This document shows positions 14,225 through 23,981 of a stretch of DNA of 64,000 nucleotides, piece after piece. The stretch covers positions 3,113,001 to 3,177,000 of the forward strand of contig NZ_CP059732.1 in assembly GCF_014117325.1 (NCBI RefSeq), read 5' to 3'. This DNA comes from Spirosoma foliorum (lineage in GTDB: Bacteria; Bacteroidota; Bacteroidia; Cytophagales; Spirosomataceae). The number at the start of each line of letters is the position of its first letter. Position 1 is the first letter of the stretch. The notes below the pieces were generated by a model. It saw only the letters and a program-made list of their open reading frames with translations. It did not search any database and was not told the origin of the DNA. The position numbers and the translations under genes are program-made.

Positions 14225-16756
14225 TTATCGCCGAATAAATACCCCAGGATGCGCACCAGTCGCTTTCTGATCCTGATACACCAGCTTTCCAGCTACCCAA
14301 ACGGCTTCAATGCCGGTTGAGAGCGCACTGCTCTCGCCAATGCGAGCATTGTCCTGCACGGTGTCTGGATTAAGTAGCACCAAATCCGCAAAATAACCCG
14401 GCGTAATTAGTCCCCGATTTTTAAGGCCAAGGTGTTCCGCCGTTAGGCCCGTCATTTTATAAATGGCTGTTTCGAGTGGCATCAATTTCTGGTCGCGGAC
14501 GTATCGACCTAATACCCGCGTAAAGGCGCCATAGCCGCGCGGATGCCCTCCGTAGGCACCGTCGGAACAGATATTGGTATGCGACCAGGCTAGAAAATTT
14601 TTCACATCCGGCTCATCCATAGACTTTCCCATAATACCCTCTACACCTTCGGCGTCTGGATTTTTCTGCGCAAATGCCGACGCTTCGGCTACTAAACCCA
14701 TCAGCGTTTGAGCCGGTTTTTCATTTCGAAGTTGAGCAATGTTGCCAACGGTTTTTCCAGCATAAGCGGGGTTAGCAGCAAACCTAACCAGTACCGATTG
14801 GGTTGGGTCGAACAGTTGATTGACCGCAAATTCAGCGCTTGTAGCATTGGTATAATCACGTTTGGGGAACAACACGCGTATCGTCGACATCCAGTAATCA
14901 TACGGATAGCAATCGGCGGTGATGTTTACTCCCTGAGCACGCGCCCGTTCCAGTTGGGCAAGTACTTGCGATGATTGCCCCCATTTGTCGCGCAGGGCAA
15001 TTTTCAGGTGCGAAATCTGAACAGGCATTTTCGTTGCCCGGCCAATCTCAATGATTTCGTCGATGGCATCATCAATCAGTACGTCCTCACTACGTATGTG
15101 GCTGATATAACGACCACCCGAATCGGCAGCGGCCTGCGCCAGTTGAATGACCTCATCGCGATTCGAGAAAAACGCTTCTTCATACTCCAACCCCGTCGAT
15201 AAGCCCAGCGAGCCTTTACTCATTTCAGTTCGTAACAAAGCCTTCATCTTGTCAACCTCCTCCGGTTTGGCTGTTCGGAAGAGTCCATTGGCTCCCAGGG
15301 CTTTCTGCCGCAGCGTAGCGTGCCCCGTGTAGGTTGCAATGTTAACGGCAACAGGATTCCGCTTCAATTGAGCCTGCAACGAATCAATCCAGTAGCTACC
15401 GCCATCCTGCCCAGACACGATAGTTGTAATCCCCTGATTAACAACGGCCAGCGCATCTGGTTGCTTGTTCAGTCCACCCACATGGTGGCTGTGGCTATCG
15501 ATAAAACCGGGTGCCAGCACAAAGCCTTTCCCATCCGTGACCGATTCATTCGGAAAGGCTGTTAATTCGCCAATCTCCCAGATTCTATCGTTTCGAAGGC
15601 GAACGGCAGCTTTTCGAGGAGTTGCGCCTGTTCCATCGATAAGTTGAACATTCGTAATCAAGTGTGTTTGTGGCAATTGTGGCGCTTTTCCTTCAAATGC
15701 TTCCCGAACAATTCTCCCAGCAGCATTGCCTCCATTGGTCAACAGAATCAGCGTCTGCTTTTTGTCGGTATACCGAATAATCATGGTCCGAAAGCCCACC
15801 CAGCTGCCCGTATGCATGAGCACCTTAGCACTATCGTCTATCATCCAGCCAAAACCATATGGATAGGTGGTTGCATCATTCAGTTTAACCGGGGTAAACG
15901 CTTCCTTAAGTGTAGCCGCTTTCACTAGTTTTTCTGTATAAAGCGCCTGGCTCCAGGTCAATAAATCGTTGGCCGACGAATAGACATTTCCATCCCCAAT
16001 AACACCATCAAGCCGGATCAGGTCATCCGGCACATTTTTTCCATTCTCTCGTCGGAACCCATAAACCCGGTTACGAGGCATGGTACTGCTTTTGTGGTAA
16101 TAGATATAGGTATTCTTGAGCTTGAGCGGCTTCACAATATTTTTATCGAAAAATGTTTCGATGGGCATACTGCCAACCTTCGTAATGATCGAACCGAGTA
16201 ACACATAACCCGTGTTGCAATACTCCCACCGATCGCCGGGCTGAAAGATGACTTCGGGTTGGTGTTGATGCAGCAATTGAAGCATACTATCGTTGGTTAG
16301 CGTATCGAGTGGGCCAGTATATTTCTGCGCCAGATCGAAATATTCGGGAAGTCCGGAGGTGTGGTTGAGCAAATCACGTACAGTAATCGTGGCGTAAGGA
16401 AAATCAGGCAAATAGGTTTGCACAGGCTCCTCATAGCTCAATTTACCCCGCTCCTGTAACTGCATGATCATCATCGCAATAAACTGCTTCGATACAGACG
16501 CCAGGTTAAAGGCTGAGTTGGTTGTCAGTGGTTCATTCGTCGTACTATTACCCGTACCTAATGCTTTCGTATAAAGCACTTTACCCTTTTCGGCAACCAG
16601 CACAACCCCATTGAACATGGCCCGGTTATAGAGCACGGTTAGAGTTGAATCAAGCGTTTTGAGATTGGGTGCCAGCAATGGCGTTCCCTTTTGGCCAAAC
16701 GCATAGGAAAAGCTAATCAGGAAAGCAAGGAGAGGAAGGTGTAAAATTCGGTTCAT
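14225..16756 (-). CDS. Secreted serine hydrolase (beta-lactamase fold) fused to N-acyl-D-amino-acid deacylase
   Basis: 843 residues. Signal peptide 1-21 (ends SYAFGQ). Residues about 30-345 are a class C beta-lactamase/DD-peptidase fold with all three motifs: S87-V-S-K90, Y179-C-N181 and H315-T-G317. Residues about 365-840 form an amidohydrolase of the D-aminoacylase type: VLAPGFIDSHSHH (413-425), GITTIVSGQDG, SHIRSED, PVQISHLKIA and ICSDGAYGG. The first half could release D-residues from peptides or muropeptides and the second remove N-acyl groups from D-amino acids. The pair acting in sequence in the periplasm is inference. The start overlaps the Lrp gene stop by 4 bases. Confidence 0.92.
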   Translation of the reverse strand: MNRILHLPLLAFLISFSYAFGQKGTPLLAPNLKTLDSTLTVLYNRAMFNGVVLVAEKGKVLYTKALGTGNSTTNEPLTTNSAFNLASVSKQFIAMMIMQLQERGKLSYEEPVQTYLPDFPYATITVRDLLNHTSGLPEYFDLAQKYTGPLDTLTNDSMLQLLHQHQPEVIFQPGDRWEYCNTGYVLLGSIITKVGSMPIETFFDKNIVKPLKLKNTYIYYHKSSTMPRNRVYGFRRENGKNVPDDLIRLDGVIGDGNVYSSANDLLTWSQALYTEKLVKAATLKEAFTPVKLNDATTYPYGFGWMIDDSAKVLMHTGSWVGFRTMIIRYTDKKQTLILLTNGGNAAGRIVREAFEGKAPQLPQTHLITNVQLIDGTGATPRKAAVRLRNDRIWEIGELTAFPNESVTDGKGFVLAPGFIDSHSHHVGGLNKQPDALAVVNQGITTIVSGQDGGSYWIDSLQAQLKRNPVAVNIATYTGHATLRQKALGANGLFRTAKPEEVDKMKALLRTEMSKGSLGLSTGLEYEEAFFSNRDEVIQLAQAAADSGGRYISHIRSEDVLIDDAIDEIIEIGRATKMPVQISHLKIALRDKWGQSSQVLAQLERARAQGVNITADCYPYDYWMSTIRVLFPKRDYTNATSAEFAVNQLFDPTQSVLVRFAANPAYAGKTVGNIAQLRNEKPAQTLMGLVAEASAFAQKNPDAEGVEGIMGKSMDEPDVKNFLAWSHTNICSDGAYGGHPRGYGAFTRVLGRYVRDQKLMPLETAIYKMTGLTAEHLGLKNRGLITPGYFADLVLLNPDTVQDNARIGESSALSTGIEAVWVAGKLVYQDQKATGAHPGVFIRR

Positions 16757-17226
16757 GAATGACTTGATTTAGTGGGAGTCGGCACTACTGTTGACTGTTT
16801 AACCGTGTAAAGGGCAATGGCACTGCTATGGACACGAATCATTGAAAGCCGGGCCAGTTGTTGCAGAAACTGAGCATACTCTTTAATGTCGTGCATCAAC
16901 ACTTTCAGCTGATAATCAATCGTTCCGGCTAGATGGTAGGCTTCCAGCACATCGGGCATCTGGCGAACACTCTCTTCGAATTCATTAATATTTTCGGGCG
17001 TATAATCCGGCATCGATACATTACAAAAGACAACCAACGATCGACCCACTTTTTCAGCATCGACCAAAGCCACATAATTGGCTATCACCCCGTCGCGCTC
17101 CATCCGCTTGATTCGTTCAAAAATAGGCGTGGTGGTCATGCCTAACTGCTCTGCCAAATCCTTGATGGTCAGTTTGGCATTCTGCTGTAATAAAGTCAGC
17201 AAGCGTAAATCAATATCATCGAGCAT
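16753..17226 (-). CDS. Lrp/AsnC-family transcriptional regulator
   Basis: 157 residues: an N-terminal helix-turn-helix (DIDLRLLTLLQQNAKLTIKDLAEQLGMTTTPIFERIKRME region, residues 3-42) and a C-terminal RAM/AsnC effector domain (about 70-145). It is the first gene of a two-gene unit; its stop codon overlaps the ATG of the deacylase fusion. A near-consensus Lrp box lies 51 bases upstream, in the gap shared with the divergent DUF1611 operon. It is therefore the natural switch of both arms, probably responding to an amino acid ligand. Confidence 0.94.
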   Translation of the reverse strand: MLDDIDLRLLTLLQQNAKLTIKDLAEQLGMTTTPIFERIKRMERDGVIANYVALVDAEKVGRSLVVFCNVSMPDYTPENINEFEESVRQMPDVLEAYHLAGTIDYQLKVLMHDIKEYAQFLQQLARLSMIRVHSSAIALYTVKQSTVVPTPTKSSHS

Positions 17227-17276
17227 AGTCTGCGTAGCATGCTATTCTTTTCAAGACTGGAATCTTACTCTCTAAA

Positions 17277-17289
17277 AGAATAATATTCT
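17277..17289. promoter_or_regulatory. Candidate Lrp-type operator
   Basis: AGAATAATATTCT is a near-palindrome that matches 12 of 13 positions of the E. coli Lrp core AGHAWATTWTDCT. It sits between the divergent Lrp gene and DUF1611 gene. A second dyad, ATTCTTTT (17244-17251) / AAAAGAAT (17274-17281), overlaps it. Control of both operons by the adjacent Lrp protein is inference. Confidence 0.6.
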
Positions 17290-17383
17290 AACCAGTTAAA
17301 AAAGCTATTATTTTATTCAGACAATTTACTGATTATAAGAACAAACTCATAGATTTAAGAAAAAATATAGAACAATTAAGCAA

Positions 17384-18448
17384 ATGAGTAATCGGGCTAT
17401 TCTGCTTACCGATGGCATATTAAGTACCCCTAATGCCAAAACCGCTCACGGTCTGATTCGTGGTACGGATCGCTATACGGTAGTAGGCGTTATCGACGCC
17501 CCTACCGCCGGACAGGATGCTGGTGTTGTGCTTGACGGCACAGCTCGTAACATTCCAGTCTTTGCATCGGTCGATGAAGCGCTGGCGCAACTTGGCGATG
17601 TTTCTTTTGCCATTGTTTCGGTGGCTACGAGTGGTGGAGTGCTTCCACCAACCATGTTAACCGATATTCGCCATAGCCTGGAGCGAGGTCTATCAATCGT
17701 CAATGGCTTACATGAATTTCTAAGTGAGAAACCTGACCTGGTAGCGTTAGCGCGGCAGTATGGCGGCCAACTTATTGACGTTCGACGACCGAAATCCCGT
17801 CAGGAACTGCACTTCTGGACGGGCGAAATAAATCAGATTACAGCGCCTATCATCGCCGTTATGGGTACCGACTGTGCACTCGGAAAGCGCACCACCACCC
17901 GACTGATCCGGGAAGCCTGCGGTCGACAGGGACTCAATGCGCAAATGATTTATACCGGCCAGACGGGTTGGTTGCAGGGTGTCAAATACGGGTTTATTTT
18001 CGATTCGACGCTGAATGATTTTGTATCGGGCGAACTCGAACACGCACTCGTATCCTGCTGGCGCGAAACCAGTGCCGATGTTCTGCTGATTGAAGGGCAG
18101 GCTTCTCTCCGAAATCCAAGCGGGCCTTGTGGTTCTGAGTTTCTGGTATCCGGCAATGCCCGACATGTTGTGCTGGTGCATGCCCCCACCCGAACGTTCT
18201 ATGACCATGAAGAACATTGGGGTCGTATTCCGCCCGTCGAGTCGGAGATCAACCTTATCAAGGCGTATGGCTCAAAAGTCATCGCATTAGCCTTGAATAC
18301 AGAAGGGTGCAGTCGAGAGGAAGCGTTTGCGTATCAAAAGCAGTATGCGACTCAACTCGGTATTCCTGTTTTGTTACCACTTGAAGAAGGTGTCGACGCG
18401 ATTGTGCCTGTCATTCAAACCTTAACCGCTACCACTCATGCGCATTAA
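17384..18448 (+). CDS. DUF1611 protein, DgcN-like (D-glutamate N-acetyltransferase-like)
   Basis: 354 residues with the DUF1611 layout: an N-terminal Rossmann-like half (1-130) and a C-terminal P-loop half with the GTDCALGKRTT motif (161-171), TGQTGWLQG and LIEGQASLRNP. In marine bacteria and archaea the characterised family member DgcN N-acetylates D-glutamate, and its partner DgcA then racemises the product. The gene overlaps the epimerase gene by 11 bases, which supports the same pairing here. The exact substrate in this organism is inferred. Confidence 0.85.
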   Translation: MSNRAILLTDGILSTPNAKTAHGLIRGTDRYTVVGVIDAPTAGQDAGVVLDGTARNIPVFASVDEALAQLGDVSFAIVSVATSGGVLPPTMLTDIRHSLERGLSIVNGLHEFLSEKPDLVALARQYGGQLIDVRRPKSRQELHFWTGEINQITAPIIAVMGTDCALGKRTTTRLIREACGRQGLNAQMIYTGQTGWLQGVKYGFIFDSTLNDFVSGELEHALVSCWRETSADVLLIEGQASLRNPSGPCGSEFLVSGNARHVVLVHAPTRTFYDHEEHWGRIPPVESEINLIKAYGSKVIALALNTEGCSREEAFAYQKQYATQLGIPVLLPLEEGVDAIVPVIQTLTATTHAH

Positions 18449-19505
18449 CGCCGTCCGTGCTTATTGCCGGGACCTTACGCTAACCAAACCATATACTATC
18501 GCTTACCAAACGATTTCGGCGGTCGAAAACGTCTTTCTGGAAATCGAACTGGCTAATGGAATTATTGGTATTGGGGCCGCCAATCCCTCGCCCGAGGTCG
18601 TGGGCGAATCTCCCGATCAGGCGCTACAAAACTTGCAAAGTGAATGGGTAACCAGTCTGGTTGGGCGCGACATTCGTCTGTTCAATACCCTCCTTAACGA
18701 AGCTGCTGACCACTTTGCCAATGCTCCCGGCACGCTGGCTGCACTGGATATTGCGTTGCACGATACCTTTGGTCAGTTTCTGGGCATTCCGATTGTTCAA
18801 TTTTATGGTCAGCAGATTCACGCGCTACCTACTTCGGTTACCATTGGCATCATGAATGTAGCCGATACATTGGCTGAAGCTACTACTTTTTATGAACAGG
18901 GATTTCGGGTTTTAAAAGTCAAAACGGGCCTTGATGTAGCCGAAGACGTGGAGCGTATTCACAAACTACGCGAGAAGTTCGGGAGTAAATTCACTATACG
19001 GGTCGACGCCAATCAAGGGTATTCCCTTGCTGATTTACAGCAATTTCTGACAGCAACCCAATCTGCTGCGATCGAATTGATTGAGCAACCGTTGCCTGTG
19101 GGACTGGAACAGGACCTTTTAGCCTTACCCGCTGCAACGAGAAGCCTACTTGCTGCCGACGAATCCCTAAAAGGCCCGGAGGCAGCTCTCGGATTGGCAC
19201 AACAACCCCAACCCTTTGGCATTTTCAACATCAAGCTCATGAAATGCGGAGGCATTCGGGCGGCCCTCGACATTGCGACCATTGCGAAGCCCGCTAAAAT
19301 CTCCCTATTTTGGGGTTGCAACGACGAAAGTCGAGTAAGTATAACGGCGGCCTTACATGCGGCATTTGCCTGTCCAAATACCCGCTATATCGACCTCGAT
19401 GGCAGTTTAGATCTCGCCGAAGACATTGTTTCCGGCGGATTTACTCTCGAAAACGGTCTCATGCGCCCAAGTGCAGGAGCGGGATTAGGGCTGAATCGTT
19501 TGTAA
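18438..19505 (+). CDS. Dipeptide epimerase-like enolase superfamily enzyme (DgcA-like)
   Basis: 355 residues of the muconate-lactonising subgroup. The acid–base lysines are K160 and K266 (KVKTG and NIKLMKCGG), and the metal ligands D190 (RVDANQGY), E216 (IEQP) and D241 (AADES). This is the pattern of L-Ala-D/L-Glu epimerases and of the N-acetyl-D-glutamate racemase DgcA. All catalytic residues are present. Translation overlaps the DUF1611 gene, so the two products are probably made in equal amounts. Either muropeptide L-Ala-D-Glu epimerisation or N-acetyl-D-Glu racemisation fits. Confidence 0.92.
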   Translation: MRINAVRAYCRDLTLTKPYTIAYQTISAVENVFLEIELANGIIGIGAANPSPEVVGESPDQALQNLQSEWVTSLVGRDIRLFNTLLNEAADHFANAPGTLAALDIALHDTFGQFLGIPIVQFYGQQIHALPTSVTIGIMNVADTLAEATTFYEQGFRVLKVKTGLDVAEDVERIHKLREKFGSKFTIRVDANQGYSLADLQQFLTATQSAAIELIEQPLPVGLEQDLLALPAATRSLLAADESLKGPEAALGLAQQPQPFGIFNIKLMKCGGIRAALDIATIAKPAKISLFWGCNDESRVSITAALHAAFACPNTRYIDLDGSLDLAEDIVSGGFTLENGLMRPSAGAGLGLNRL

Positions 19506-19510
19506 TTTAC

Positions 19511-19595
19511 TTTTTGATTCTCGCCGGGTTAAAACCCAGCGCATCTTATTTATTCTGTGTTTTGCGCCGGGTTTTAACCCAGCGAGAATCAAAAA
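19511..19595. repeat. Inverted repeat, TCGCCGGGTTAAAACCCAGC family, copy 1
   Basis: A 33-base arm at 19511-19543 pairs with 19563-19595 with two mismatches. Arms and loop (ATTCTGTGTTTT) are shared with 47488-47574, so this is a dispersed element and not just a local hairpin. Confidence 0.92.
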
Positions 19596-19656
19596 TAAAG
19601 AGAGACCTATTTAGGCGCTTATTTAAATCGATTCAATAAGCCCGTGGGTACAACCT

Positions 19657-19680
19657 CATATATCATACATCATACATCCC
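19657..19680. repeat. Single half-repeat (CATATATCATACATC vocabulary)
   Basis: CATATATCATACATCATACA-type sequence directly before the N-demethylase ATG at 19685, with no complementary partner nearby. The same words form a full palindrome at 34411-34475, and another half sits at 3534-3556 upstream of hisG. Confidence 0.5.
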
Positions 19681-19684
19681 AAAA

Positions 19685-20614
19685 ATGCTCCCCTATTTCC
19701 CTTTTGGCCAACAGTTTAACGATAAAATGGGAACTCGCCCATTGCTCGAAAGCGATCGGCTGATTGACGTGGATGAGCATTATTCAGGTCAAATTGGGCT
19801 CAAGCGAACGCTATTGACCGAATTACCCGCTTATTATTTCCAGACGCAGTCCGGCTATGAAACCGCGCATTGGGAGGTATTAGCGTTAGTTCTGGAAAAT
19901 CTGGTCCGATTTGCCCCTGATTCATTTACGCTTCATCAGAATGGAGCAAACTGGGTATGGCAAAATCATCTCCTAAATGAAGAAACAGTATTTACCTTCG
20001 GTGATTCAGAGTCTCTACCTATCAATCCGCTTGATTGGGTAGGTCGTCAGGTTCAGGAAGATCTACTTCTTCTCGCAGGTAATGACGCCCAATTAGTTTC
20101 GGGCCAGCTTTGTTTTGCGAATGATTGGAGTCTTGACGAGAAACTAGGCTTACCGTTCTCGCAAATCCATGCGCCTATTGTTTCCATTGTTGAGCCTATG
20201 ATGCGGGCTGCACAAATGCTTATGGAACGACTGCCCATCGGACGCCCGATTTGGCGACTGAATTGGAGTGTAAAAGTGAGTGATCAACTGGATATGACCA
20301 GCCGCCATACGGCGACGATACACCAACTACTCACCAACCGTCTACCCTTCTTACCCCCCGACACGATTGGTAATCAGCTTTATATCCGCGTTGAGCGACA
20401 AACACTCACCCGATTGCCCCGTTCAGGAGCTATTCTATTTAGCATTCATACCTATCAAAATCTGCTCGCCAATGAAGCCAGTGATCCAGAACGTGCGGCC
20501 CGAATGGCACAGGTTTTCAGTACGACTCCCCCGGCTTTGCTTGCTTATAAAAGCATGACCCATTTTATGCCCGAGCTACTCGCCTATTTAACCAGACAGT
20601 CAGAAATAAACTAA
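19685..20614 (+). CDS. Haem-dependent oxidative N-demethylase family protein (DUF3445)
   Basis: 309 residues, no signal peptide. DUF3445 features are visible: MGTRPLLESDRLIDVDEHY near the start, GQLCFANDWSLDEKLGLPFSQIHAPIVS in the middle, and WRLNWSVK and RVERQTLTRLPRSGAILFSIHTY toward the end. The characterised family enzyme is a haem/PAS-like protein that removes methyl groups from secondary amines. Within this locus it may strip methyl groups from N-methylated amino acids. It is separated from the epimerase by a palindrome, so it may not be on the same transcript. Confidence 0.85.
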   Translation: MLPYFPFGQQFNDKMGTRPLLESDRLIDVDEHYSGQIGLKRTLLTELPAYYFQTQSGYETAHWEVLALVLENLVRFAPDSFTLHQNGANWVWQNHLLNEETVFTFGDSESLPINPLDWVGRQVQEDLLLLAGNDAQLVSGQLCFANDWSLDEKLGLPFSQIHAPIVSIVEPMMRAAQMLMERLPIGRPIWRLNWSVKVSDQLDMTSRHTATIHQLLTNRLPFLPPDTIGNQLYIRVERQTLTRLPRSGAILFSIHTYQNLLANEASDPERAARMAQVFSTTPPALLAYKSMTHFMPELLAYLTRQSEIN

Positions 20615-20686
20615 GCCCATCGGCAAATCAAATCTATTTTCCCGCCTTAAAACAAGTATTTATTCCGTATTATTACGATCCTATAG

Positions 20687-20694
20687 AATCTTTG
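20687..20694 (+). promoter_or_regulatory. Weak -7 box candidate for the permease
   Basis: AATCTTTG matches TAnnTTTG at 7 of 8 positions, 33 bases upstream of the permease ATG. No -33 TTG is seen at the right spacing. Confidence 0.35.
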
Positions 20695-20727
20695 TGTGCT
20701 TTTTACCTAAAGAACCAAACAACGTTC

Positions 20728-22113
20728 ATGAGTAAACTTTCACGCTCGATCGAGTTGCGACCAGCCATTTTATTAGTTGTCAGCGGCATTGTTGGATCGG
20801 GAGTTTTCAAGAAAGTCGCACCGATGGCGGCTGAATTAGGTTCACCGTTGCTGGTGCTGGCTTGTTGGATAGCCGCCGGTGTTGTTAGTCTGACGGGAGC
20901 ACTCACCTATGCTGAAATGGCGGGTATGTTTCCTCAATCGGGTGGCGAGTATGCCTATTTCAAGAAAGTGTATGGGCGTTTATTTGCCTTCCTGTATGGC
21001 TGGGGCGCATTTACCGTCATGCGAACGGCTACAATTGCCGCCCTCGCGCACATTTTTGGCCAATCATTAATTTCCTTAACAAGTCTACAGGGCGATTCTG
21101 TCGAACTGGCGGTTAAATGTGTAGCTACTGGCCTTATTACCTTTTTAAGTCTACTTAATTACCGGGGTGTTACGTTTGCCGAAGGGCTAAGTCGTGGCCT
21201 TATCTACCTGACGTTCACGGCCGTTGCGGTTATTGCGTTTCTGGGGTTCACAGCAAAAACGGGTAGTATTGATCATCTTACCCAATCCATTCCGGTAAGC
21301 GCTACAGCTGCGCACGGGAGTTTACTAGGCTCACTCGTTGTGGCGTCGCTGGGTGCATTCTGGGGGTATGACGGCTGGAATCAGATTGCTTACATTGGGG
21401 AAGAAGTCAAAAATCCGCAACGAAATCTACCCATTGCTCTTGGCGTTGGAACGGCTATCGTCGTCCTGATTTATGTATTGCTGAATATTGTCTATGTATA
21501 CGTACTGCCCATCGGTCAACTAGCTGGACTCGCTAGTTCACCCGGCAAAATTGCGGCTGTTGAGGTTGTTCGGGAAGCAGCAGGTTGGGCTGGAGCGCTC
21601 TTTATTTCAATTCTAATCCTGGTAACAACGTCGAACTCGACCAATGCGTCAATCCTGATGCCGGCCCGTGTTTTTTATGCGATGGCCAGAGATGGGCTGT
21701 TTTTTAAAGCCGCAGCCGTTATCCACCCCCGCTTCAAAACGCCATCAGTCGCTATTTTGCTACAGTCCCTGTGGGCTGTAATTCTGGTGTGGTCTGGGAG
21801 TTTCGATCAGTTAACAGATATGCTGGTCTTTGCCTCGTTTATTTTCTACGGAGCCACCGCTTTCGGCGTACTTTTACTTCGCTATAAACAACCGGACCTG
21901 CATCGGCCTTATCGAGTTATTGGATACCCAGTTGTACCGGCCTTTTTCTGTGGCTGCTGCGCCTTGCTGGTCATTATGACCCTCATCAACCAACCACGTG
22001 AAGCATTAACGGGACTGGGATTGATTTCAACAGGGTTACCCTTTTACTGGTTCTGGAAATCCAAACCGCCGGTAATCGAATCAGATCGTGTGGATGCTGT
22101 AGATACAATTTGA
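20728..22113 (+). CDS. APC-family amino acid permease
   Basis: 461 residues from the ATG at 20728 (SKLSRSIELRPAILLVVSGIVGSGVFKK). About 12 membrane spans; the first carries the APC signature GIVGSGVF and the third region AGMFPQSGGEYAYFKKVYG. The SLGAFWGYDGWNQIAYIGEEVKNPQRNLP segment is typical of LAT/serine–threonine exchanger-like members (TM6). It lies downstream of the N-demethylase and probably imports the amino acids on which the locus acts; the substrate cannot be told from sequence. The frame is open further upstream (20692), but the ATG at 20728 suits the family N-terminus. Confidence 0.93.
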   Translation: MSKLSRSIELRPAILLVVSGIVGSGVFKKVAPMAAELGSPLLVLACWIAAGVVSLTGALTYAEMAGMFPQSGGEYAYFKKVYGRLFAFLYGWGAFTVMRTATIAALAHIFGQSLISLTSLQGDSVELAVKCVATGLITFLSLLNYRGVTFAEGLSRGLIYLTFTAVAVIAFLGFTAKTGSIDHLTQSIPVSATAAHGSLLGSLVVASLGAFWGYDGWNQIAYIGEEVKNPQRNLPIALGVGTAIVVLIYVLLNIVYVYVLPIGQLAGLASSPGKIAAVEVVREAAGWAGALFISILILVTTSNSTNASILMPARVFYAMARDGLFFKAAAVIHPRFKTPSVAILLQSLWAVILVWSGSFDQLTDMLVFASFIFYGATAFGVLLLRYKQPDLHRPYRVIGYPVVPAFFCGCCALLVIMTLINQPREALTGLGLISTGLPFYWFWKSKPPVIESDRVDAVDTI

Positions 22114-22211: not shown

Positions 22212-23981
22212 ATGCCCTTTACCCTAACTAACTCCCGCCGACTTTATCCTGCACTACTGGCGTTGTTGTTCACAATCACCGCACTGGCTCAGCCAGTTTT
22301 GCCGCAAAAAGAGCGGTTAGCCTGGTGGAAGGCTGCCCGCTTTGGCCTGTTTATTCACTGGGGTCCAGTGACGCTGACGGGAAAAGAAATAAGCTGGTCG
22401 CGGAATGAGTATGGCAAAAGCCGGTATGATTCGCTTTATCGCCGATTCAACCCCACCCGCTTCAACGCAAAGGAATGGGTAGCGCAGGCGAAAGCAGGGG
22501 GTATGAAATACGTTGTCCTGACAGCCAAACATCATGATGGTTTCTGTCTGTGGAATACACAAACGTCGCCGTATAACATCATGTCAGCTCCCTTCGGGCG
22601 GGACGTTTGTAAAGAACTGGCCGATGCCGTTCATGAAGCAGGTCTTAAACTCGGCTGGTATTTCTCGTTAGCCGATTGGAAAGACCCGGACTGCCGCAAT
22701 CCTGTCAGCAATAGCGCATTTACCGACCGGATGAAGGCCCAGCTCACCGAATTGTTGACCAATTATGGGAAGGTAAGTTTGTTGTGGTTCGATTACGAGG
22801 GATCTCCTTCTCCCGCCAACCCGAAACCCATTTATGAACTCGCTCATCGACTCCAGCCAGGTATCATTCTGAACAATCGACTGGAAGCGTTCACTCCCGA
22901 CGAGTCTCACAGCCAACCCGGCAAGTATGGTGATTACACAACTCCCGAAGGGTTTGTGGCTGGCTTTGGCCAAACACCCTGGGAAACCTGTACGAATCTG
23001 GGACATCAGTGGGCCTGGAAATTTGGCGATACGCCCCGTAGTCTGCGAGAAACCGTCCATACGCTCCTTCGTTGTGTTGGCAGCAACGGCAATTTACTGC
23101 TCAATGTTGGTCCCGATAGCCTGGGGCAGTTCCCTCCTCTTTTCGCCAACCGTCTTCGCGAACTCGGAAACTGGATTTCTCCCCGATCAGAAGCTATTTA
23201 TGGCACCTTGGGTGGTCCTTATACCCCAACCGATTCCTACGTTTGTACGCAAAAGGGCAACACCATTTACGTACACGTATTGTCAGGTACAGAAGTGACT
23301 GTCACATTGCCATCTCTTCCCGCTACGATCAAACAGGCCACCTTACTAGACGGCCGTCCAGTCGCTTTTAGGCAAGAGAAAAACAAGCTACTCTTAACTG
23401 TTCCGTTGGCGATGCGTGACTCTATTGCAACCATCATCGCTCTCACACTTGATCGACCAGCGGCTACGGTTCCTCTTATTCGACCCTTCACAAAAACAGG
23501 TTCATTGGCGTATGGGAAGGTAGCTACGGCCTCCAGTCAACTTAGCCATTTTTTGCACAATGCGGCTGCCGCTGTAGACGATGATCCGAAAACCTATTGG
23601 AAGTTGGGGCGACGGACAGATGTTGACTTCGATACCTATTATGGACAGGACCTCTCGTTTCAATCGCCTGCCTTACAAGCGCTATACAATCCGACTGGCT
23701 GGCTAGAAGTAGACTTGGGGAAACCGCAACGGGTTGGCGAAGTGCTTGTTCGTGATTTCTCTTCGACGCCAAATTCAGAACCAGTCGCCCAAATTAGTCG
23801 GTTTGCGATTCAGTATCAGAAAGGGAACGACTGGGTGACTGTAGCGCAGGGGCAGCAACCTGGCGCCAATTGGCAGCAAACCATTTCACCAATTACAGCC
23901 CAACGCTTCCGGCTCATTATTCAAGAGTCTGTTGGCAGTATTGGCATCCGCGAATTCGAGCTGTTTCCGCCAAAACAATAA
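22212..23981 (+). CDS. Secreted alpha-L-fucosidase (GH29) with C-terminal discoidin-like domain
   Basis: 589 residues. Signal peptide 1-27 (ends ITALAQ). GH29 catalytic barrel from about 33 to 340: RFGLFIHWG (43-51), TAKHHDGFCLW (104-114), and the nucleophile D194 in LLWFDYEG. A beta-sandwich follows, then about 430-589 a discoidin (F5/8 type C) carbohydrate-binding fold with VDDDPKTYWKLG and GWLEVDLGKPQRVGEVLVRD. It would cleave fucose from glycans in the periplasm or outside. No SusC/SusD or other glycan genes adjoin it, so it is a stand-alone glycosidase. Confidence 0.95.
   Translation: MPFTLTNSRRLYPALLALLFTITALAQPVLPQKERLAWWKAARFGLFIHWGPVTLTGKEISWSRNEYGKSRYDSLYRRFNPTRFNAKEWVAQAKAGGMKYVVLTAKHHDGFCLWNTQTSPYNIMSAPFGRDVCKELADAVHEAGLKLGWYFSLADWKDPDCRNPVSNSAFTDRMKAQLTELLTNYGKVSLLWFDYEGSPSPANPKPIYELAHRLQPGIILNNRLEAFTPDESHSQPGKYGDYTTPEGFVAGFGQTPWETCTNLGHQWAWKFGDTPRSLRETVHTLLRCVGSNGNLLLNVGPDSLGQFPPLFANRLRELGNWISPRSEAIYGTLGGPYTPTDSYVCTQKGNTIYVHVLSGTEVTVTLPSLPATIKQATLLDGRPVAFRQEKNKLLLTVPLAMRDSIATIIALTLDRPAATVPLIRPFTKTGSLAYGKVATASSQLSHFLHNAAAAVDDDPKTYWKLGRRTDVDFDTYYGQDLSFQSPALQALYNPTGWLEVDLGKPQRVGEVLVRDFSSTPNSEPVAQISRFAIQYQKGNDWVTVAQGQQPGANWQQTISPITAQRFRLIIQESVGSIGIREFELFPPKQ

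What the first reader, a model, noticed from the sequence alone, without database searches (positions are those of the whole stretch)
14225..22113. Six-gene locus for D- and N-modified amino acids under a shared Lrp switch
Seen: a secreted serine-hydrolase/D-aminoacylase fusion and an Lrp gene (minus strand) are divergent from DUF1611, an epimerase-like enolase, a DUF3445 N-demethylase and an APC permease (plus strand). Known: DUF1611 (DgcN) and its enolase partner (DgcA) convert D-glutamate through N-acetyl-D-glutamate to the L form; DUF3445 enzymes remove N-methyl groups. Inference: the locus releases D- or N-methyl residues outside the cell, imports them and turns them into ordinary amino acids. 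I know of no described system that joins all six parts.
Basis: partly seen in the sequence, partly recalled or inferred. Interest (0 to 1): 0.8.

Follow-up and report, generated by a model that had tools for sequence, protein, structure and literature searches.

The report
D-amino-acid salvage locus with Lrp operator
A conserved bacterial gene set, apparently switched by its own regulator, that probably breaks down peptides carrying mirror-image (D) amino acids outside the cell and flips the building blocks into the usual form inside; related sets occur in several phyla, but the exact substrate has not been shown.

Summary
The pair DUF1611 + enolase is adjacent in 32 of 32 Spirosomaceae loci; the fusion (21), permease (22) and Lrp (12) recur around it. 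The N-demethylase-like gene is lineage-specific (4 of 32) but sits in 19 of 20 Spirosoma loci and once moved together with the permease.

The Lrp switch gains support: a palindrome in a spacer of constant length. The secreted fusion keeps its S12 motifs; its D-aminoacylase domain has Asp for the metal-ligand Cys.

Most likely: Lrp-controlled salvage of D-residues from cell-wall-like peptides. D-Glu and N-methyl substrates remain unproven.

The parts
14225..16756 (-). Secreted fusion: N-terminal S12 serine hydrolase (penicillin-recognising type) + C-terminal D-aminoacylase-like amidohydrolase
   Evidence: PF00144 and PF07969/PF01979. S12 motifs SVSK/YCN/HTG intact. Amidohydrolase HxH, His, His and catalytic Asp kept; the Cys metal ligand is Asp (GQDG) here and in the 35 other Spirosomaceae rows aligned (one of them the window's own copy)
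16753..17226 (-). Lrp/AsnC-family regulator
   Evidence: PF13404/PF13412 + PF01037; adjacent in 12 of 32 family loci and 7 of 20 Spirosoma loci
17236..17248 (.). Second, weaker site of the putative Lrp operator pair (AGCATGCTATTCT), 41 bp from the main site
   Evidence: Spacing 41 is the best pair in 6 of 7 lrp-bearing Spirosoma loci; seldom the best pair in other genera
17277..17289 (.). Palindrome AGAATAATATTCT, putative Lrp operator in the divergent region
   Evidence: Only match with <=1 mismatch in the window, expected 0.10; 3 exact sites in the 8.85-Mb genome, reversed control 0; <=1 mismatch in 7 of 7 lrp-bearing Spirosoma loci
17384..18448 (+). DUF1611 protein, P-loop dethiobiotin-synthetase-like C-terminal domain; clade distinct from DgcN
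18438..19505 (+). Enolase-superfamily dipeptide epimerase, M. capsulatus type
19685..20614 (+). HODM alpha-like (DUF3445) protein, Spirosoma/Fibrella-specific member
   Evidence: PF11927 209 bits; 5lte E 1.7e-44; within about 2.3 kb of DUF1611 in 19 of 20 DUF1611-bearing genus genomes, one of them a fragment at a contig end
20692..22113 (+). APC/LAT-type amino-acid permease (ATG alternative start at 20728)
   Evidence: PF13520; best structures a consensus xCT-type chain 7ccs, 6f2g, cystine/glutamate transporter, LAT1; 22 of 32 family loci

Best explanation
The locus is an Lrp-controlled module that salvages D-amino acids from cell-wall-like D/L-peptides. Step 1 (inferred): the secreted fusion trims such peptides with its S12 domain and frees D-residues from their N-acyl or aminoacyl group with its D-aminoacylase-like domain. 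Step 2 (inferred): the LAT-type permease brings them in. Step 3 (inferred): DUF1611, a P-loop enzyme with a dethiobiotin-synthetase-like domain, masks the amino group of the D-residue at the cost of ATP, by acylation or by linking an amino acid; the dipeptide epimerase inverts the alpha carbon of the masked residue; a cell peptidase unmasks the L-form. Lrp senses the amino-acid product and sits on palindromes between the divergent arms (inferred). In Spirosoma an HODM-like haem protein is coupled to the permease and probably handles a modified (perhaps N-methyl) part of the imported pool. Shown here: gene content, conservation, active-site residues, conserved palindrome. Not shown: any reaction, substrate or DNA binding.
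For: DUF1611-enolase adjacent in 32/32 family loci, with fusion 21, APC 22, Lrp 12. In 69 of 80 named enolase loci (Bacteroidota, Proteobacteria, Planctomycetota, Cyanobacteriota, Desulfobacterales and others) DUF1611 is within 1.5 kb. Recurrent neighbours, Pfam-typed on one representative each (counts): class-A beta-lactamase-like hydrolase (cluster c7, directly upstream in 16 loci), M14 carboxypeptidase (c25, 7), and singly a beta-lactamase2-M14 fusion, S13 DD-carboxypeptidase, NamZ muramidase, GH3-beta-lactamase fusion. Desulfopila L123: Lrp - enolase - DUF1611 - D-aminoacylase - oligopeptide-binding protein; L134 has the same gene clusters in that order. Enolase matches the M. capsulatus dipeptide epimerase solved with L-Arg-D-Lys. 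Fusion active sites kept. Operator. DUF1611 fold: remote DgcN and dethiobiotin synthetase.
Against: No substrate or reaction is tested. The 16 c7 and 7 c25 loci come from related Cytophagales/Hymenobacteraceae, so they are few independent events; the Methylococcus locus has no cell-wall gene typed beside it (malic enzyme, the one neighbour typed), and other typed neighbours are unrelated (Rho, GAF/PAS, GDPD, nucleoside gate, copper monooxygenase; two without a family). Residue 24 of the enolase, the Arg position of B. subtilis AEE, varies among close relatives (Q, N, Y, K, R). An invariant Arg in the amidohydrolase insertion (R633) may sit at the specificity position of N-acyl-D-Glu deacylase, favouring an acidic residue (with PMC12017989; by spacing only). 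DxD is also present beside true DgcN. 11 of 80 enolase loci show no DUF1611, some at contig ends. A shared fold does not show ATP-dependent acylation.
Confidence: 0.45

Rival explanations
1. Dipeptide salvage without masking: L-Xaa-D-Yaa dipeptides are imported or made in the cell, the epimerase turns them into L,L-dipeptides, peptidases finish the job, and DUF1611 has a side role (regulation, repair or energising).
For: The enolase belongs with a structurally solved dipeptide epimerase. Desulfobacterota loci carry an oligopeptide-binding protein beside the set (typed in L123; by cluster in L134). 11 of 80 enolase loci show no DUF1611.
Against: DUF1611 adjacency is the most constant feature (32/32; 69/80), which argues for a direct role. 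In Spirosoma the transporter is an amino-acid, not a peptide, permease.
Confidence: 0.22
2. One reading: a DgcN/DgcA pathway, D-Glu to N-acetyl-D-Glu to N-acetyl-L-Glu, fed by the secreted deacylase.
For: Remote homology of both proteins to DgcN and DgcA, and an enolase beside each of the four true DgcN loci L069-L072. DxD shared. R633 of the deacylase domain may be an N-acyl-D-Glu specificity Arg (with PMC12017989). Some sources name relatives of the fusion N-acyl-D-aspartate/D-glutamate deacylase.
Against: 131.5 vs 480 bits and 130.2 vs 400 bits; separate supported clade; DgcN active-site segments differ; DgcA keeps an Arg in the 20s loop that the window enolase lacks.
Confidence: 0.13
3. 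N-methyl amino acids are the main target: HODM demethylates them and the rest is a generic amino-acid operon.
For: HODM adjoins in 19 of 20 Spirosoma loci and travels with the permease in G419 (L244).
Against: The unit is conserved without HODM in 28 of 32 family loci. No DmmA-like_N domain in the genome, whereas dimethylamine monooxygenase needs dmmABC (passages of PMC5520151; that HODM is kin to this system is recalled). HODM genes outside the locus with typed neighbours: GH18 plus the permease (L244), SusD and a glucoamylase-like gene (L246), glucoamylase-like (L247), and in L245 an NHL/beta-propeller gene and a DUF6169 gene.
Confidence: 0.07

Closest known systems
DgcN-DgcA D-glutamate pathway (NF041892, NF042940; structure 7xrj)
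   Different: Scores far below both cut-offs; different clade; different active-site segments; different 20s loop in the enolase
Methylococcus capsulatus dipeptide epimerase (3ro6, 3rit)
   Different: Residue 24 is Gln, not Arg; activity of the window protein untested
D-aminoacylases (1m7j, 3gip), subtype V amidohydrolases
   Same: Catalytic Asp, both metal His, HxH, and the Lys and Arg motifs that bind acyl and carboxylate
   Different: The Cys metal ligand is Asp; fused to an S12 domain; apparently secreted
HODM alpha-like N-demethylase (5lte, DUF3445)
   Same: Homology over residues 24-304, E 1.7e-44
   Different: No DmmA-like_N domain found in the genome; located in a D-residue operon
Cell-wall peptide recycling by L-Ala-D/L-Glu epimerase (B. 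subtilis 1jpm)
   Same: Epimerase beside cell-wall-type hydrolases in several lineages; an annotators' name beginning 'Protein often near L-alanine' (cut; rest recalled)
   Different: Below the AEE model cut-off (187.8 vs 500 bits); 30% identity to 1jpm

Membership tests
DgcN (NF041892) | Score above curated cut-off 480 bits | tested here: not met
   131.5 bits; four true DgcN in Bacteroidota reach 540-561
DgcN (NF041892) | Falls in the DgcN clade | tested here: not met
   DgcN clade 100/100; window in another 28-row clade 100/99 (long branches are flagged there)
DgcA (NF042940) | Score above curated cut-off 400 bits | tested here: not met
   130.2 bits; two other own-genome enolases score 222.7 and 168.1, also below
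DgcA | N-acetyl-D-Glu racemase activity | not testable with these tools
   needs enzyme assay
Dipeptide epimerase (M. capsulatus type) | Catalytic Lys pair, metal Asp/Glu/Asp, second Lys, DxD | tested here: met
   K160, K162, D190, E216, D241, K266/K269, D319, D321 invariant in A2 (roles by alignment to AEE, partly recalled); DxD alone does not discriminate
Dipeptide epimerase (M. capsulatus type) | Closest solved relative is a dipeptide epimerase | tested here: met
Dipeptide epimerase (M. capsulatus type) | Epimerises dipeptides | not testable with these tools
   needs enzyme assay
L-Ala-D/L-Glu epimerase (NF041118) | Score above curated cut-off 500 bits | tested here: not met
   187.8 bits
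Subtype V amidohydrolase / D-aminoacylase | Cys/His/His metal site | tested here: not met
   Asp in place of Cys, His/His kept; definition from PMC12017989 (passages)
Subtype V amidohydrolase / D-aminoacylase | Catalytic Asp and acyl/carboxylate-binding Lys and Arg | tested here: met
   ICSDGA...HPR and SHLK motifs; the other listed ligands were not all aligned
S12 serine peptidase | SxxK, YxN, H/KTG | tested here: met
   SVSK, YCN, HTG; changed in L047, domain absent in L055
HODM alpha-like | PF11927 above its gathering score | tested here: met
   209.1 vs 25 bits
Dimethylamine monooxygenase (dmmABC) | Partner subunits present | tested here: inconclusive
   No DmmA-like_N in the own genome; other subunits not searched
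Lrp/AsnC | AsnC HTH and ligand domain | tested here: met
   PF13404, PF01037
Lrp/AsnC | Binds the divergent region | not testable with these tools
   conserved palindromes only

The most novel reading that the evidence does not exclude
The DUF1611 clade of this locus is a new ATP-dependent enzyme with a dethiobiotin-synthetase-like domain that links an acyl or aminoacyl group to D-amino acids, so that the neighbouring dipeptide epimerase can invert them: a one-way, PLP-free mask-epimerise-unmask route from D- to L-amino acids used in many phyla, with HODM extending it in Spirosoma to N-methyl D-peptides such as nonribosomal peptides of cyanobacteria.
Probability: 0.15. Interest if true: 0.82.

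Novelty: new variant of a known kind. Interest (0 to 1): 0.52.

Why it matters
D-amino acids are a large store of poorly degradable nitrogen, recovered (established knowledge, recalled) mainly by racemases, oxidases or the DgcN route. This locus ties a domain of unknown function to a class of dipeptide epimerases, one of them known from a crystal structure, and to a secreted hydrolase with an unusual metal site. It also gives a candidate regulator-operator pair, so the substrate can be found by asking what Lrp senses and what two purified enzymes do together.

Tried and rejected
DxD as a mark of dipeptide rather than N-acetyl substrates: rejected, because enolases beside true DgcN also have it. 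Residue 24 as a specificity reader: inconclusive, variable among relatives. HODM as a chance passenger: rejected within Spirosoma (19 of 20), though most of the family lacks it. Own-genome paralogues (L253, L254) as part of the system: not pursued; a PLP aminotransferase and an amidohydrolase lie beside them. The other two exact operator sites in the genome (L256, L258) lie just inside the 5' ends of mechanical ORFs. A Lrp consensus recalled from E. coli matched no better than chance over the window (14 vs 11.2 expected), so the claim rests on the locus-specific palindrome. That motif was read from the lrp-bearing loci and its general form AGMAWAWTWTKCT was widened after seeing other genera, so the shuffle fractions (200 shuffles a locus) are partly circular; the contrast with loci lacking lrp is the better test. 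Whether those genomes keep lrp elsewhere was not searched. Promoter and terminator scans gave no excess over shuffles. Rfam (gathering threshold) and tRNA scans were empty. Three papers asked for by identifier are not held (the DgcN paper, Lukk 2012, Kalyanaraman 2008); what is said of them is recalled.

Literature searched for prior description: DUF1611 (2 papers, unrelated by title and abstract start), DgcN/DgcA, dipeptide epimerase and context (20 of 26 listed), N-acetyl-D-glutamate, HODM (20 of 119 listed), Methylococcus epimerase, D-glutamate/DgcN (10 of 347 listed), D-aminoacylase with epimerase (10 of 20 listed). No title or abstract start listed describes this set; only open-licence papers are held. 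Passages only were seen of PMC12363236, PMC10845958, PMC5808125, PMC5520151 and PMC13338154; passages and section 10 of PMC12017989.
Full report
What is there. No NCBIfam model reaches its cut-off for these proteins in the rows shown: DUF1611 scores 131.5 bits for DgcN (cut-off 480), the enolase 130.2 for DgcA (400) and 187.8 for L-Ala-D/L-Glu epimerase (500) (for the fusion 25 of 85 rows were shown).

Is it a unit? The DUF1611 protein occurs in 32 of 121 genomes of the family. In stretches of 13-20 kb around all 32, the enolase is near in 32 (next gene in 31; in L046 one esterase ORF intervenes), the permease in 22, the fusion in 21, Lrp in 12 and HODM in 4 (counted within 5 ORFs at 40% identity or more). 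In 16 of the 21 the fusion is upstream on the DUF1611 strand; in 5 it is divergent, as in the window. Within the genus, 20 of 36 genomes have DUF1611 and 24 of 36 have HODM. HODM lies within about 2.3 kb of DUF1611 in 19 of the 20, one of these a fragment at a contig end. The exception, G419, has fusion-DUF1611-enolase at one place and HODM-permease together about 180 kb away (L237, L244). So HODM belongs to the Spirosoma locus and is tied to the permease rather than to the inverting pair. Over the 20 genus loci the permease is present in 18, the fusion in 17, Lrp in 7, and the complete six-gene set in 7. Where the fusion is missing (L229, L230, L235), only L235 was typed: a PLP beta-eliminating-lyase family gene.

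Beyond the family. In the phylum sample, 30 of 60 DgcN-model matches were fetched as loci; of the 13 of the window's score class (L086-L098) 11 have an enolase match in the 1.5-kb flanks, as do all 4 true DgcN loci; of the 13 middle-class loci (L073-L085) one does, L084. An alignment headed by the solved M. capsulatus epimerase found 80 named loci (80 was the limit, more exist). DUF1611 is within 1.5 kb in 69 of 80. The Methylococcus locus L099, whose enolase is 86% identical to the crystallised one, has DUF1611 directly upstream. Neighbours were typed by Pfam on 20 proteins that I chose: a class-A beta-lactamase-like hydrolase (cluster c7, directly upstream in 16 loci), M14 carboxypeptidase (c25, 7 loci), a beta-lactamase2-M14 fusion (L158), S13 DD-carboxypeptidase (L118), NamZ muramidase (L156), a GH3-beta-lactamase fusion (L131; by cluster also L156), an S12 hydrolase (L112), D-aminoacylase-type amidohydrolase (L109), amidase (L130), Lrp/AsnC and an oligopeptide-binding protein (both L123). 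The rest are unrelated or blank: Rho, GAF/PAS, GDPD, malic enzyme (L099 itself), a sub-threshold Redoxin, copper monooxygenase, nucleoside gate, and two with no family. Desulfopila L123 shows Lrp - enolase - DUF1611 - D-aminoacylase - oligopeptide-binding protein; L134 carries the same clusters in the same order. The c7 and c25 loci are from related Cytophagales lineages, so they are few independent events. The theme that recurs is peptides with D-residues, most plausibly from cell walls.

The fusion. Among 41 aligned rows (homologues with over 380 matched residues, the window present twice) the S12 motifs are intact in the window. They are changed in L047, and L055 lacks the domain, so the amidohydrolase part is the more constant one. 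That part keeps HxH, two metal His, the catalytic Asp and the Lys and Arg motifs of D-aminoacylases, but the Cys ligand is Asp (GQDG) in all 36 Spirosomaceae rows. The two Desulfobacterota relatives keep Cys (GNCG); of three other distant rows one has GQDG and two neither. PMC12017989 defines subtype V by Cys/His/His and ties specificity to a Leu/Arg/Gln position. An Arg (R633), kept in the 36 Spirosomaceae rows, may lie at that position, judged by spacing from an inferred AfDam Ser289, a hint of an acidic substrate.

The switch. Seven Spirosoma loci with an adjacent lrp keep a 155-157 bp spacer. Each holds AGAATAWTATTCT with at most 1 mismatch; of 12 loci with the fusion divergent from DUF1611 and no lrp beside it, 2 do, 3 have 2 mismatches and 7 have more. 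A partner site 41 bp away is the best pair in 6 of 7. In 10 loci of other genera with lrp divergent from the fusion, a widened motif fits exactly in 9 and with 1 mismatch in 1, but a 41-42 bp pair is the best pair in only one. The exact palindrome occurs 3 times in 8.85 Mb, the reversed control 0; the other two lie just inside ORFs. The sequence at 17277-17289 was read directly.

HODM. It is homologous to 5lte over residues 24-304. The genome has one copy and no DmmA-like_N domain; dimethylamine monooxygenase needs dmmABC (passages of PMC5520151). N-demethylation remains possible, not shown.

Verdict. The D-residue theme and the Lrp switch are strengthened, DgcN/DgcA membership fails the tests available, and N-methyl chemistry is open. 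The most likely function is Lrp-controlled salvage of D-residues from cell-wall-like peptides, with DUF1611 masking and the epimerase inverting. The DUF1611-epimerase link itself seems to have been seen by annotators (a name cut short, completed from recall).

Noticed in passing
L069-L072: True DgcN genes (540-561 bits) with an adjacent enolase occur in 4 of 296 sampled Bacteroidota, separate from the window's DUF1611 type.
   Followed up: partly
L253, L254: The window's genome has two more AEE-like enolases, one beside a PLP aminotransferase, one after an amidohydrolase and near a beta-lactamase-like gene; both score higher for DgcA than the window's enolase, though below the cut-off.
   Followed up: partly
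L062:6985-11718: A related DUF1611-enolase pair follows SusD and a carbon-nitrogen hydrolase, suggesting outer-membrane import of the substrate.
   Followed up: no
L046:9544-14588: Here an esterase lies between DUF1611 and the enolase and an M20 peptidase follows, a candidate for the unmasking step.
   Followed up: no
L073-L083, L085: A DUF1611 class of middle DgcN score (223-262 bits) shows no enolase match within the 1.5-kb flanks.
   Followed up: no
L244, L246, L247: HODM genes outside the locus sit after a GH18 gene (with the permease) or after a glucoamylase-like gene and, in L246, SusD.
   Followed up: partly
window 22212-23981: An alpha-L-fucosidase follows the permease on the same strand; among the 17 further genus stretches it directly follows the permease only in L227 and L228.
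   Followed up: partly
L120, L124: An enolase of this clade without DUF1611 lies just after rho in L120 (Flexithrix); the same upstream cluster is in L124.
   Followed up: no
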